Shown here one piece after another: positions 1 to 38,381 of a stretch of DNA of 38,381 nt. Source of the stretch: a bacterium (lineage in GTDB: Bacteria > Patescibacteriota > Saccharimonadia > Saccharimonadales > UBA4665); assembly GCA_021799575.1 (NCBI GenBank), contig JAJZAD010000008.1:1-38381 (forward strand). The letters run 5' to 3'. A model generated the notes under the pieces. The model was given only the letters and a program-made list of their open reading frames with translations, had not been told where the DNA came from and did no database searches. Within the stretch, counting starts at the first letter, position 1. Each line of letters opens with the position of its first letter. The position numbers and the translations under genes were made by a program.

Positions 1-108
1 TACTTCGCTGAAAGTGTTGGACGAGTAACCGAGACTGCTATCAAACTGTACATTGAGCATCAGCATGACCGACCCAACATGGCGAAACAAGGAAGCCTCG
101 GACTTTAG
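1..108 (+). CDS. tnpB: C-terminal tail of a TnpB-like RNA-guided nuclease / OrfB transposase (partial)
   Basis: Frame 1 is open from base 1 and gives 35 residues ending ...NMAKQGSLGL before TAG at 106-108. The catalytic RuvC and zinc-finger parts of TnpB would lie upstream and cannot be seen, so no domain can be verified. The call depends on the stop codon being embedded in the terminal hairpin, which is typical of tnpB genes in IS200/IS605 elements. If it is tnpB, the transcript running off this gene through the hairpin would form the 3' end of the omega RNA, with the guide taken from the flanking pncA sequence. Confidence 0.5.
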   Translation, partial: YFAESVGRVTETAIKLYIEHQHDRPNMAKQGSLGL

Positions 109-115
109 TCCGAGG
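96..115 (+). repeat. IS right-end hairpin (possible omega-RNA 3' stem)
   Basis: CCTCGGAC (96-103) and GTCCGAGG (108-115) are perfect inverted repeats around a TTTA loop. The structure overlaps the last codons and the stop of the upstream reading frame and lies 1 nt before TAGTTCAC. It has no T-run, so a simple intrinsic terminator is unlikely. In tnpB elements the equivalent hairpin is recognised as the right end and forms part of the guide-RNA scaffold. Confidence 0.6.
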
Positions 116-123
116 TAGTTCAC

Positions 124-456
124 TTAAGAGACGCAATTACCTTCAGCAAAGGCACATTACCAAATCAAGATGCATATAGTGGCTTCCAGGCACATGACAG
201 ATTTAATGAAGGGCTTGAGCAGCTGATCGGTGACCCCAATATATTTAGGATTGCTGTCTTTGTGGGCGGACTCGCGACTGACTATTGCGTAAAAGCCACT
301 GTATTAGATGCCCGAAAAAGAGGATATGACACATTTGTTCTTAGCGACGCAATTAAGGGAGTGTCGCCAGAAACTTCGGTTCAAGCCGTTGATGACATGC
401 TGAGCGCTGGCGCAAGATTCATGAGCGTGAATGAATTAGTGGGAGCCTTGAGGTAA
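124..456 (+). pseudogene. pncA: Nicotinamidase (PncA), 3' part, interrupted by the IS
   Basis: The frame is continuous from the IS boundary to TAA at 454-456 and begins in mid-protein without a start codon. The first in-frame GTG, at 262, lies within the conserved core. Seen: TFSKGT with the Lys of the catalytic triad (codon 148-150), the DAYSGF segment, and GLATDYCVKAT with the nucleophilic Cys (codon 286-288). These are hallmark blocks of nicotinamidases in the isochorismatase superfamily, which convert nicotinamide to nicotinate for NAD salvage. The N-terminal catalytic Asp and the metal-binding Asp/His motif are absent and presumably lie on the other side of the IS. The stop is only 6 nt from pncB, so the two once formed a coupled salvage operon. 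The fragment is very unlikely to be active. Confidence 0.75.
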
Positions 457-462
457 ATAATT

Positions 463-1713
463 ATGGAAACTTTTAGCCCAACTCTAGCGGAGACAGATAC
501 CTTACTTACGGCTGGCTTGGATTATTACAAGCCTACCATGAGTCAACTAGCATATAAGCATGAACCGGATACGCAGGTTACTTTCACTCTACATAATCGC
601 GGAGATCAACGCTTTGCAGATTATCTCGAACCCGGTCAACTTCAAGAACGATTTGATGAGATTCAAGCTCGAGGTTGGACTCGACAAGAAACAGAATTTT
701 TAGGCTCGATAGTCGTTAATGATGGTCAACGTGCCTTTAGCCAAAACTATCAAGAATATTTAAGGACGCATGACCTGCCTCCTGTTGAAATTGGGTATGA
801 CGAGACTTCACAAGATTTATTTGTTGAAACAACTGGTGATTGGCCAATGGCTATGTTTTGGGAAACACAAGTTATGGCAGATGTAAGCGAATATTTCTTT
901 GAGAATTACTTAATAGCACACGATATCAACCCAGTCGATGTTTATAACGAGGGCGATAGACGCTTGAGTGAGAAAATAGCTGTCTTACAAGCCCATCCAG
1001 ATATTAGAATTGTAGACTTTGGGACAAGAAGGCGCTTTAGTTTGAAATGGCACGAGCATGTTTTAGAAAGACTTGTTGAAGAGTGTCCAGATAGTTTAGT
1101 GGGTACTAGCAATGTCGCACTTTCTCAAAAGTTTAATCTAAAGCCTATTGGTACTTTTGCTCATGAGATGCCTATGGTTTATGCAGCTCTTGCAGAGATC
1201 CGTGGTCAAGACGTTCGCGAATCACACAATGGATTTCTAGAAGATTGGTATAACCTTTATGGTGAGGAATACTCTATTGCCCTAACTGATACCTTTGGTA
1301 CTGATTTCTTTTTCGAGGACTTCACCGCTGAGCAAGCGAGAAAATGGCGTGGAGTGCGCCAAGACTCAGGTGACCCGTTTGTTTTTGGAGAACAGCTTGT
1401 TAAGTTTTATCAGGAACTTGGTATCAATCCGAAATCCAAGGTACTAGTCTTTAGCGATAATCTCAACTTTAGAAAAATCGTTGACCTAAAGCAACAGTTT
1501 GGTGACCGCATTAACGACCTTGACGGTATAGGCACGAATCTTACTAATGACTTAGGGCTAACCGCACTTAATATGGTTATGAAAGCTACTAGAGTTCGAG
1601 TAGCAGAAGCATCTGCGTTTACTGTCAAATTAAGTGATGACAAGGGAAAACATACTGGACCACCTGAGTCGGTGGCTTTATATGAGGATAAATATTTTAA
1701 GGTAGCAGCATGA
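463..1713 (+). CDS. pncB: Nicotinate phosphoribosyltransferase
   Basis: The 416-residue protein is a normal length for PncB. It makes nicotinate mononucleotide from nicotinate and PRPP (Preiss-Handler NAD salvage, cytosolic). Visible family features: the N-terminal DYYKPTMSQLAY segment, FTLHNRG, GTRRRFS (phosphate binding), the GTFAHEMPM block with the His that is phosphorylated in this family (about residue 234), and RQDSGDP near residue 306. The start ATG lies 6 nt after the pncA stop, consistent with an operon or translational coupling. With pncA broken by the IS, the enzyme could use imported nicotinate but no longer the product of this nicotinamidase. Any promoter must be in or beyond the IS, because none is visible in the short gap. 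Confidence 0.93.
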   Translation: METFSPTLAETDTLLTAGLDYYKPTMSQLAYKHEPDTQVTFTLHNRGDQRFADYLEPGQLQERFDEIQARGWTRQETEFLGSIVVNDGQRAFSQNYQEYLRTHDLPPVEIGYDETSQDLFVETTGDWPMAMFWETQVMADVSEYFFENYLIAHDINPVDVYNEGDRRLSEKIAVLQAHPDIRIVDFGTRRRFSLKWHEHVLERLVEECPDSLVGTSNVALSQKFNLKPIGTFAHEMPMVYAALAEIRGQDVRESHNGFLEDWYNLYGEEYSIALTDTFGTDFFFEDFTAEQARKWRGVRQDSGDPFVFGEQLVKFYQELGINPKSKVLVFSDNLNFRKIVDLKQQFGDRINDLDGIGTNLTNDLGLTALNMVMKATRVRVAEASAFTVKLSDDKGKHTGPPESVALYEDKYFKVAA

Positions 1714-1770
1714 AGTTCATATCTGTTAATTCCTTGAAATTATAACGGAAAGGTGGTATGGTAAAAATTC

Positions 1771-3042
1771 ATGAAAGTAGGTTTGGAAGTATTTCCCCAG
1801 TTTGAGGATACACACGAAGGCGAAGTATCTGTACATGGCCAGAGGCTTGAGCCATCGGTACTCTATCTAGCCCCTGAAATGCCAGGAGTAGAAGTTGAGT
1901 TTATTCCCGATAATGAACCACGCGAGGATATTGATCTGTACTTATGCTCTATATACACTCGGGGCTGGAGACGCTTTAAAGAGTTTTCTGAAAGAGTTGG
2001 GCGGGAAAAGATAATTGCTGGAGGTTACCATCCAACAGCCTTACCAGAAGACTGCTTGCCTTATGCGCACAAAGTAGTGCCAGGACTTTGTGGAGATATT
2101 GAATCTATTATTGAAGAGCCTAACGAGGGTATCCACACGCGTCCTTTTGCTCCTAGAGTGATGCACCGTGACCTAGTGGATATGACCAAAATGTATCAAG
2201 TTTTTCCTGATGTTAAACCAGATATGATGACTGGTTCGTCAAATTCTAGCGTAGGTTGTCCTTTTGATTGTGATTTTTGTAGTACTCCAAAGCTATCAGG
2301 CCGACGTATGCACGCTTCACCGTTGGAAGTCGTAGAAGCAGATATCGAATCCCTCAAGGAACACGAGGTAAAAGTAGTATTTATTCGTGACGAAAGCTTT
2401 GCAACCCATCCAAAGTTTCGTGATGTGGTGCCTTTATATGGCAAAGCCGATTTCCCCATCCTTTATTCATTCGGCACTGGACACGCCATGACTGAGGAAA
2501 AGACGAAGTTATTAGCTGAGAATAATTGGCATAGTCTGTGCTTTGGTCTTGAAGATGTTGGAGTAAAGTATCGCAAGAATATAGGCTTAGCAGAAGCCTG
2601 CCGTATGTGTCATGAATATGGAATTAATATAACTCTTAGCTTTATAGTTAACGATGACGGTAAAACTAAAGAAGAAGCTGCTCAAAACTATCAAGCACTT
2701 TATGATGCCTTCACTACACTTCGTCCATCCCAAGTTTGCGCTAACTTTCTAATGCCTTTCCCCGGTACGGGTATTTGGGATAAATACAAGGATCGTATTA
2801 CAGAAGATGACTTTGAAAAGTACGATTCTAAAACACCAATTCTTTCGCCTCCTGAACTTCACGATTGGCACCGCCATATGGCAGTAGCTGTACAGCTTGC
2901 TTATTACCACTCTAAAGCTTATCCAAGAGACTTTGAATGCGGCGACACCCAACATCTACGTTTTCAAGAACTGGAACAGCGTTATGATATGGCGGACGGT
3001 AAGTGGGAAAAATGGTTTAAGCCGGAGAAAGCAACTGCTTAA
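1771..3042 (+). CDS. B12-binding-domain-type radical SAM protein
   Basis: The protein is 423 residues. The N-terminal third looks like a cobalamin-binding Rossmann-type domain, with IIAGGYHPTALPED around residues 80-95, as in B12-binding radical SAM proteins. The radical SAM cluster motif follows as VGCPFDCDFCS (CX3CX2C, about residues 164-171), then a (beta/alpha) core and a C-terminal region rich in Trp/His. It probably binds [4Fe-4S] and SAM and may bind a corrinoid, but the substrate cannot be read from the sequence. The start ATG is preceded by GGAAAGGTGG (1748-1757); another ATG at 1758 is out of frame. It is followed after 18 nt by the 182-residue companion, so the two are probably co-transcribed. 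An ATP:corrinoid adenosyltransferase is encoded about 5.5 kb away. Confidence 0.82.
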   Translation: MKVGLEVFPQFEDTHEGEVSVHGQRLEPSVLYLAPEMPGVEVEFIPDNEPREDIDLYLCSIYTRGWRRFKEFSERVGREKIIAGGYHPTALPEDCLPYAHKVVPGLCGDIESIIEEPNEGIHTRPFAPRVMHRDLVDMTKMYQVFPDVKPDMMTGSSNSSVGCPFDCDFCSTPKLSGRRMHASPLEVVEADIESLKEHEVKVVFIRDESFATHPKFRDVVPLYGKADFPILYSFGTGHAMTEEKTKLLAENNWHSLCFGLEDVGVKYRKNIGLAEACRMCHEYGINITLSFIVNDDGKTKEEAAQNYQALYDAFTTLRPSQVCANFLMPFPGTGIWDKYKDRITEDDFEKYDSKTPILSPPELHDWHRHMAVAVQLAYYHSKAYPRDFECGDTQHLRFQELEQRYDMADGKWEKWFKPEKATA

Positions 3043-19259: not shown

Positions 19260-22200
19260 TTACAGCTTGGTATTATTTACCAAATCAGTTTCGAATTTCG
19301 TAATACCGGCTAAGCTTTTCGGGTATTCGGAGGTGTCGGGGAAATCCAAGTTTATTATTCTTCGCCAAACTGCAGTTATTAATGCGATAAGCTGCTTGCT
19401 CTCACTCTCTTCAAAATCCAGGTCAATATTTTTAATTAATCCGTCCTCAGGATCAGGTTCAACGAATTGAACAGTTGCTCCACTGACCGTATATTCTTTA
19501 AATTGCGGCGACGTTTCAACTAGCAGTTTATAAAAATACAGTTGCCGTTTATGATGATACGGTTTAATTTCCCTTCCCCAGCGGTTATAATTTGTGCCGG
19601 TTTTAAAGTCTATTATCCGTAGCGTATGTTGCTTTTTATTTATCACTAGCCGGTCGATATTACCGGTTAGCCTGGCACCGTTTATAACGGTTTTAAAACC
19701 GGTTTCGCTTAAATCGTCCGGTCCTGAATAAGCCGTTCCGGTTTGTGTGAAATAAGCAGTGAGTGCGTCCTGTCCTTGTTCGGCGAAACGGGCAATATCC
19801 TTTTGGGACAAACGGCGCTTACTTAGGCGTCTTAAGAATTCTTCTTTAATTTGTTCGAGAGTCGGCTGCTGATCATTTTGGCGGGTAATTTTAAAGTACC
19901 AATCGAGTATTCCGTGCACGACGCTGCCGTATTCTAGTCTGGGCGTTATCGGGCGCGGGAACTTCAGTATCTCTTCGAGATAAAATTTTTGCGGGCCGCC
20001 GTCTTTAATGTCGGTAAACTTGTTCAAATTGGTGGCACTTAGATTAAACAATTGAAGCCGGTCGGTTAAAAGAGCGTGCCGCTTGGGTTGATAGGTGTCC
20101 AAATGACGGTCAAACCACTCAAGATGTCTGGAACTCAGCTTTAGAGCGGATGATTTGGGAAGCAGAATTACTCTTTTAGTTTGCGGCAGTAACGGACTGA
20201 TTAACTTTTTCTCCTCCTCGTGTTCGCCTAAATATCCCAATCTTTCAACCGTCTGTCCGTTGATTTTTTCCCTATAACCGGTTAGGATCAAATGGTTTTT
20301 GGCTCTGGTAACTGCTACAAACAACAATCTTAACAATTCGTCATCGTTCCTGCTGCCGTGCCGGACATGTTCCAAATTATTAGGTAGGGTAATTCGATTG
20401 TTTCGGTTTTTCGCACTACGGCCCCATACGTTATCGCAGACGTCGATTAAAATTACTGTGTTAAACTCCTGACCTTTTGATGCATGGGCGGTCATGAGAT
20501 TAACTGCTGCTTCGCTCTCTCTAAACGGCGATTTATCCTCAATTTTAATGTTGGCGCGAGTGTAGTCATCAATAACTTCAATAAATTGCTTGAGGTTTAA
20601 AGTATGGTCGCTGCTAGCTTTGGCTTTAGCGACCAAAACCGACAAAGCTCCTAGTAAACGCCATGTATCGACAGGCACTTCGCGGTTAGGATCTTGCCGC
20701 TCATTAAAATAAAACCCGAAAAAGGGGCTAATAAATTTACCCATTCCCTCTTGATTTAAATCTAGTTCCGAAATCCCGATTAAATAGTTAAGTATCTGCT
20801 CGAATGGCTCATATTCAAAAATTTGGTGCAAGCGCAAAAAAAATACCGCTATCGGTTTAGTATTATCCCGTTGCAGCAGCAGTTTTAGCCATGACAGTTT
20901 TTTATTCCTGGTCTCCCAAACCAATTCCCATATTAGGGTGGTCGGCAGGCGCCAGTATTCAAAACTAAGCACCTGGGGCCACAAGGCATCCTCTTCATTT
21001 CCTTCACCGGCAGACAAGACCAATCTCGCGGCAGTTATCAGCTGCTTTATTAACGGATTTTCTAAAACGTTATCTTTCCGTTCATAGTTTAAGGCAACAT
21101 GTTTAGCGTGCAGATAGGGTACCAATTCTTCAAGTTGTTCATGTTTCGGAGCGATAATAGCGATCGAATCACCCGTTGTCTGTTTAGATATCAGGTCGGC
21201 TACGTAGTCCGCTGTCCAGGCCAATTGTTCGACGTCTAAGGGTAGTTCGACGCGGTTTATGATTTCTTTAGCTTTTACACTATGGGAAACTTGGGCTTTA
21301 TCGGTCAGTTCCAGTCTGGTCTGGATCTGGTTGCTTAGCGACTCGGCAAAATGGATTATTCCAGACGTAGAACGGTAATTAGTTTTTAAAGTAATTAGTT
21401 TGACTTGGCGGTATAGATTGAAGAATCGTTCCATGTTTGAATAATGGGCGCCCTGGAAACTGTAAATCGCCTGATCGTCGTCGCCTACAGCCAGTATATT
21501 GGGCCGGTTTTCATTGGCCGCATTGTCTGCCAGCAGTTCTATTAAACGCAACTGTGAAGCATTAGTATCCTGGAATTCGTCCAGTTGAATATATAAGTAA
21601 CGCTCTTGCAGGTCGGATTTGATCTCCGGGTGTTCACCCAAGCCTTTAATAGCCAGCATGATCATGTCATCGTAGTCGTAGAGTTTGCTGGCTGCTAGTT
21701 TGGCATTATATTCCCTATATACCTCGGTGAAATAATGTATACGCCGATTGGCAGTTTGGCATTTGAGTACAAACCCGTGGGTTGTTTTATCTTTACCCAG
21801 CCATTTGGTTTTAAATCTGGTCAAAGCCGGAGTCCGGTTCACTTCTTTTACCTGATTTAAAGCTTGCTCCAGATCTTCAAGCCATAGCGTCTTTAGAGGT
21901 ATTATTCCCGGTACGGTCATTGTTTCAGGTAAAACGAGGGATTCCTCAAACAATCGTTCATAGGCCGGAATTTGTTTTTTACTGAGGCTGTGCGCTGAGT
22001 CGATTAGCTTGTTAGATAAATCTGCAGCCGCTGAAATGAATGCGTGGTTGGTATGTGCAATTGTGTCCAGATCATCAGGAGTCAATAAGGCTTTTTTGTA
22101 TCCACTGATTAAATCCTTTATATCTTTTAGGTAATACTCATCTTTTAGCGGATTGTTATAAGGCAGCTCACTTTGGATCTCGCGCAATAACTTATCTTGA

Positions 22201-38197: not shown

Positions 38198-38280
38198 GAC
38201 TTAATCTGAGAATGAGTAATCAAGGTCGGTCGGAAGCCATAAGCTAAAACCGTTCTGCATAAGTTCAGAAACATATTGGA

Positions 38281-38305
38281 CTCCTAGCTACTAAATAGTT
38301 AGGAG
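38281..38305 (+). promoter_or_regulatory. Hairpin that could mask the ribosome-binding site of the next gene
   Basis: CTCCTAGCT (38281-38289) pairs with AGTTAGGAG (38297-38305) around a 7-nt loop, with one G-U pair. The right arm includes most of the AGGAGG (38301-38306) that precedes the ATG at 38312 by 5 nt. In RNA this would occlude the Shine-Dalgarno and could act as a thermo- or translational switch. No T-run follows. Confidence 0.5.
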
Positions 38306-38311
38306 GTATTA

Positions 38312-38381
38312 ATGTCTCATGAGGGTGTAGATAGAACAGTCTTTATGTATGGCTTTGTGACGGGTTATGCTCGTAAAGCAA
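38312..38381 (+). CDS. Unidentified CDS, N-terminus only (runs off the window)
   Basis: ATG 38312, with AGGAGG 5 nt upstream, opens 23 residues (MSHEGVDRTVFMYGFVTGY...) with no stop before the window ends. It is too short to assign. The start and ribosome-binding site are convincing. Confidence 0.6.
   Translation, partial: MSHEGVDRTVFMYGFVTGYARKA

What the first reader, a model, noticed from the sequence alone, without database searches (positions are those of the whole stretch)
1..456. IS200/IS605-like right end inserted in nicotinamidase pncA
The frame ends in a hairpin followed by TAGTTCAC, and the very next bases are mid-gene pncA coding sequence with the catalytic Lys and Cys but no N-terminus. 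The NAD salvage pair pncA-pncB is therefore broken at its first gene. In an organism likely dependent on salvage, loss of nicotinamidase would force reliance on nicotinate or another route.
Basis: partly seen in the sequence, partly recalled or inferred. Interest (0 to 1): 0.62.

Follow-up and report, generated by a model that had tools for sequence, protein, structure and literature searches.

The report
IS200-type insertion truncating nicotinamidase gene pncA
At the very start of this Saccharibacteria contig, the end of a small jumping gene (IS200/IS605 type) sits inside the gene for nicotinamidase, cutting that NAD-recycling enzyme in half; this is a real but ordinary gene disruption, and the other half lies beyond the end of the assembled contig.

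Summary
Window position 1 is the start of the contig (G000:C1). Bases 1-123 are the right end of an IS200/IS605-type element: the last 35 codons of tnpA, a perfect 8-bp-stem hairpin, then TAGTTCAC. The same 123 bases end contig C15, where sequence diverges exactly after TTCAC; older copies in relatives end at the same place. Bases 124-456 are the in-frame last 110 codons of pncA (nicotinamidase), with catalytic Lys and Cys but without the first ~86 residues (catalytic Asp and metal ligands). No other PncA, and no 5' half, was found in the binned genome. Synteny with a same-genus genome explains the gap: there the order is nadD-nadE-nrtR-pncA-pncB-rSAM. Own contig C11 covers the left flank, then ends in an IS3-type element; C1 resumes inside pncA. 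The missing ~3.7 kb is below the bin's smallest contig (5.2 kb), so it was probably lost at binning; deletion is the rival. Dependence on salvage is weakly supported: most genus mates lack pncA, pncB and apparently nadE, and NadE was not found here. The element is probably tnpA-only, so no tnpB is expected. A clean IS disruption of an accessory NAD island; low novelty.

The parts
1..123 (+). Right end of an IS200/IS605-type insertion sequence (cut off on the left by the contig end)
   Evidence: 100% identical 123 b at end of C15 and divergence right after TTCAC; 79-87% copies in relatives G007 and G065
1..108 (+). Last 35 codons and stop (TAG 106-108) of the Y1 (IS200-type) transposase tnpA
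   Evidence: Y1_Tnp 101-121 weak; fuller homologous copies Y1_Tnp E 5e-21 and 3e-15
96..115 (+). Right-end palindrome CCTCGGAC-TTTA-GTCCGAGG, overlapping the end of tnpA
   Evidence: 8-bp stem, 4-base loop; fold z -2.97; hairpin position kept in relatives' copies
116..123 (+). TAGTTCAC terminus; presumed right cleavage site TTCAC
   Evidence: last bases shared with the C15 copy and aligned in relatives; cleavage itself is inferred
124..456 (+). 3' part of pncA (nicotinamidase), 110 codons plus stop, with catalytic Lys and Cys, without catalytic Asp and metal ligands
463..1713 (+). pncB, nicotinate phosphoribosyltransferase, intact (416 aa)
   Evidence: NAPRTase domains; TIGR01514 306 bits, above its cut-off
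1771..3042 (+). B12-binding/radical SAM protein; conserved right flank of the NAD island
   Evidence: 95.5% aa identity to the gene in the same place in G006

Best explanation
An IS200/IS605-type (probably tnpA-only, ~0.56 kb) insertion sequence transposed into codon ~86 of pncA in an accessory NAD-salvage island (nadD-nadE-nrtR-pncA-pncB) of a Saccharibacteria genome, leaving a 3' fragment that cannot make nicotinamidase. By the known mechanism of the family, the single-stranded element was joined 3' of a short target in pncA without target duplication (inferred). Because identical copies exist, the short-read assembly broke at the element: the contig keeps the last 123 bases of the IS plus 3' pncA, pncB and the right flank. 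The left half (IS left end, 5' pncA, nrtR, nadE, nadD) most likely lies on an unbinned contig under 5 kb between this element and an IS3-type element at the end of C11. The cell would then lack nicotinamide deamidation; intact PncB could still use nicotinate if nadD and nadE are present. Shown: the IS end, the junction, the truncation, the missing catalytic residues, no second PncA in the bin. Inferred: location of the other half, loss of function in all cells, recency (two identical copies; uninterrupted 110-codon remnant).
For: Identical 123-b right end in two contigs diverging exactly after TTCAC; homologous copies with the same terminus and Y1 transposase in G007 and G065. PncA remnant starts at residue 87 of the 1ilw-type enzyme and stays open to the natural stop. 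Contig ends of this bin overlap each other by 123-127 b at repeats, as expected of de Bruijn breaks at repeats longer than the k-mer. C11 13480-20373 is syntenic with G006 C25 132-9934, just before nadD, and then ends in an IS3-type transposase; C1 continues with pncA-pncB-rSAM. The G006 stretch between is ~3.74 kb; the smallest contig in the bin is 5,221 b.
Against: No IS left end, pncA 5' half or nadE was found in the bin, so a deletion joined to the IS cannot be excluded. No reads: an intact allele in part of the population cannot be excluded. The window PncA is only ~34% identical to the G006 PncA, so the exact missing sequence is not predicted.
Confidence: 0.8

Rival explanations
1. The IS right end is the border of a deletion or rearrangement (for example between IS copies): nadD, nadE, nrtR and the 5' half of pncA are gone, and pncB with the pncA stub is a decaying remnant.
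For: NadE, otherwise found beside pncA in the pncA-pncB islands examined, was not found anywhere in a 92%-complete bin, nor any pncA 5' half. C11 and C1, the two flanks of the island, both end in mobile elements.
Against: The missing stretch is shorter than any contig kept in the bin, so absence is expected anyway. The stub is a clean open frame and pncB is intact.
Confidence: 0.15
2. Mixed population or misassembly: most cells have intact pncA and the IS junction is a minority or chimeric join.
For: The genome is a fragmented metagenome-like assembly; no reads could be inspected. IS200/IS605 elements can excise precisely (family knowledge), so intact alleles may coexist.
Against: The junction falls exactly at the IS terminus, shared with an independent copy on C15 and with relatives, which a random chimera would not give; only one pncA version is in the bin.
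Confidence: 0.05

Closest known systems
IS200/IS605 family insertion sequences (IS200-like group, Y1 HUH transposase TnpA)
   Same: Y1 transposase C-terminus, hairpin close to the right end, short non-palindromic terminus, several copies with a fixed right boundary; nearly full copies in relatives hold tnpA only
   Different: Left end and target site not visible in this genome; terminus TTCAC here
IS6110 insertions in pncA of Mycobacterium tuberculosis (PMC8552512)
   Same: A mobile element interrupts pncA and removes nicotinamidase activity (predicted here)
   Different: IS3-family element with another mechanism; selected by the drug pyrazinamide there, no known selection here
Nicotinamidase PncA (Pyrococcus horikoshii 1ilw/1im5; M. 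tuberculosis 3pl1)
   Same: Residues 87-177 of 1ilw align, with the catalytic Lys and Cys
   Different: N-terminal half with catalytic Asp and metal ligands is cut away
nadD-nadE-nrtR-pncA-pncB island of Saccharibacteria (G006 C25, same match as JAJZKM010000009.1)
   Same: Same place beside the same radical SAM gene (95.5% aa)
   Different: pncA interrupted; pncB only 61.5% and pncA ~34% identical; orf264 (Nudix) between pncB and the radical SAM gene missing in the window

Membership tests
IS200/IS605 insertion sequences | Y1 (HUH) transposase TnpA | tested here: met
   Only the last 35 aa here (E 0.064); homologous copies in relatives Y1_Tnp E 5.2e-21 and 2.9e-15
IS200/IS605 insertion sequences | Subterminal hairpins at both ends, no terminal inverted repeats | tested here: inconclusive
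   Right hairpin 96-115 present; left end not available in this genome
IS200/IS605 insertion sequences | Repeated element with a fixed right boundary | tested here: met
   Two copies identical up to TTCAC then diverging; same boundary in relatives
IS200/IS605 insertion sequences | Insertion 3' of a fixed short target, no target duplication | not testable with these tools
   Left flank of the insertion is not assembled
Nicotinamidase (PncA) | Asp-Lys-Cys catalytic triad and metal ligands | tested here: not met
   Lys and Cys present in the remnant; N-terminal half with Asp and metal ligands absent, so it is a pncA fragment, not a working enzyme

The most novel reading that the evidence does not exclude
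The IS works as a reversible switch: precise peel-and-paste excision leaves pncA intact in part of the population, turning nicotinamide salvage on and off in a host-dependent Saccharibacterium.
Probability: 0.03. Interest if true: 0.5.

Novelty: new member of a known kind. Interest (0 to 1): 0.15.

Why it matters
It documents an IS disrupting an accessory NAD-salvage island in Saccharibacteria, and shows how mobile elements at both borders can remove a whole metabolic module from a binned genome and mimic gene loss. Metabolic inferences about auxotrophy from such bins need the assembly graph.

Tried and rejected
Second intact PncA: the only other Isochorismatase-family gene (C12:46758-47270) lies beside a MarR-type regulator gene (by reading) and has TSGVV in place of the catalytic Cys motif, so it is not PncA. 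NadE: the only own-genome hit (C15:36445) is by its sequence a tRNA 2-thiouridylase (MnmA). Own nadD on C2 is not next to nadE and differs from the island copy of G006, so it is taken as the core copy. pncA 5' half: searched with the G006 PncA and with a nine-sequence N-terminal profile, nothing credible. IS left end: blastn of copies from two relatives against all contig ends, none. A genome-contig scan with the PncA fragment gave no relatives. My first phmmer run for PncA upstream of related pncB genes printed nothing; rerun with full sensitivity it found PncA-like genes in all 14 loci, two of them only weakly. No sigma-70-like outward promoter at the IS end.

Full report
What is there. The window is the whole of contig C1 of an 805-kb, 16-contig genome, 91.9% complete; its relatives with similar pncB are mostly Saccharibacteria. 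Position 1 is therefore the end of the assembly, not of a gene neighbourhood. Bases 1-123 carry the end of a reading frame (stop 106-108), a hairpin at 96-115 and TAGTTCAC; bases 124-456 are in-frame pncA, followed by pncB at 463-1713.

The left part is an insertion-sequence end. The same 123 bases, without a mismatch, end contig C15 in reverse orientation, and the two contigs differ right after TTCAC, apart from one chance T. In 93 genomes of the family, G007 (same genus) and G065 hold diverged copies (79-87%) with the same hairpin position and terminus. The most complete ones carry a Y1 transposase frame (E 5e-21 and 3e-15) and span about 0.56 kb between the left palindrome and the right end (read from the printed sequence). 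This is an IS200-like member of IS200/IS605; there is no room for tnpB. The weak hit of the 35-aa tail alone (E 0.064) would not have sufficed.

The right part is half of nicotinamidase. It aligns with residues 87-177 of the Pyrococcus enzyme 1ilw (E 3.9e-18) and with NCBIfam PRK11609 positions 108-208 of 213. Lys9 and Cys55 of the fragment match the catalytic Lys and Cys; the N-terminal half, with the catalytic Asp and the metal-binding Asp/His residues conserved in relatives, is missing. The fragment cannot be an active nicotinamidase (inference from the family's known chemistry). No other PncA was found.

Why the contig stops. Contig ends of this bin overlap one another by 123-127 bases at repeats, the mark of a k of about 127. 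The C1/C15 overlap of ~124 bases therefore means that the repeat is at least that long, as expected of a full IS, not that it is 123 bases long.

Where the other half should be. In G006 (same genus) the order is Fur-like, glutaredoxin-like, nadD(-), nadE, nrtR, pncA, pncB, a Nudix gene, radical SAM (NrtR and NadE domains). Own contig C11 has the same left flank in the same order, up to the glutaredoxin-like gene ending at 20373, then an IS3-type transposase cut by the contig end; C1 has the pncA 3' part, pncB and the radical SAM gene at 95.5% identity. So C11 and C1 are probably the two sides of one island, each ending in a mobile element. In G006 the stretch between nadD's end and the matching pncA point is ~3.74 kb; the smallest contig in this bin is 5,221 b. 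A size cut-off would remove that piece. Deletion of it is the rival and cannot be excluded without reads.

Meaning. In the genus sample only G006 and this genome carry pncA and pncB, and a nadE above the family cut-off was not seen in five genus mates of 94-97% completeness. The island is an accessory module, so its damage does not show dependence on it. If nadE and nadD survive on the missing piece, PncB could still use nicotinate; if not, pncB is a stranded gene.

Novelty. IS insertions in pncA are known from Mycobacterium tuberculosis (IS6110; PMC8552512). Nothing here goes beyond known kinds. The only open, unlikely reading of wider interest is reversible excision as a switch.

Noticed in passing
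window 1-1734 versus 1735-3042: Sharp break in similarity to G006: the radical SAM gene is 84% identical in DNA (95.5% aa), pncB just to its left only 66% DNA (61.5% aa) and pncA ~34% aa, and the Nudix gene between them in G006 is absent. Suggests xenologous replacement of the NAD island at one locus.
   Followed up: partly
window 38255-38381: The last ~127 bases of the window are shared with ends of contigs C2, C5 and C12: the contig also ends in a repeated, probably mobile, element at its right side.
   Followed up: no
G000:C15 ~68,200-68,950 (L002 ~790-1490): The second copy of the IS right end lies next to a RelE-like toxin and antitoxin-like gene pair (names from reading the translations, not from a family search).
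   Followed up: no
L110-L114: pncA of two types (LDYCV and TDYCV active-site motif) occupies the same place upstream of pncB in otherwise similar nadE-nrtR islands of Saccharibacteria; ADP-ribosylglycohydrolase-like and Nudix genes often lie within or beside the island.
   Followed up: partly
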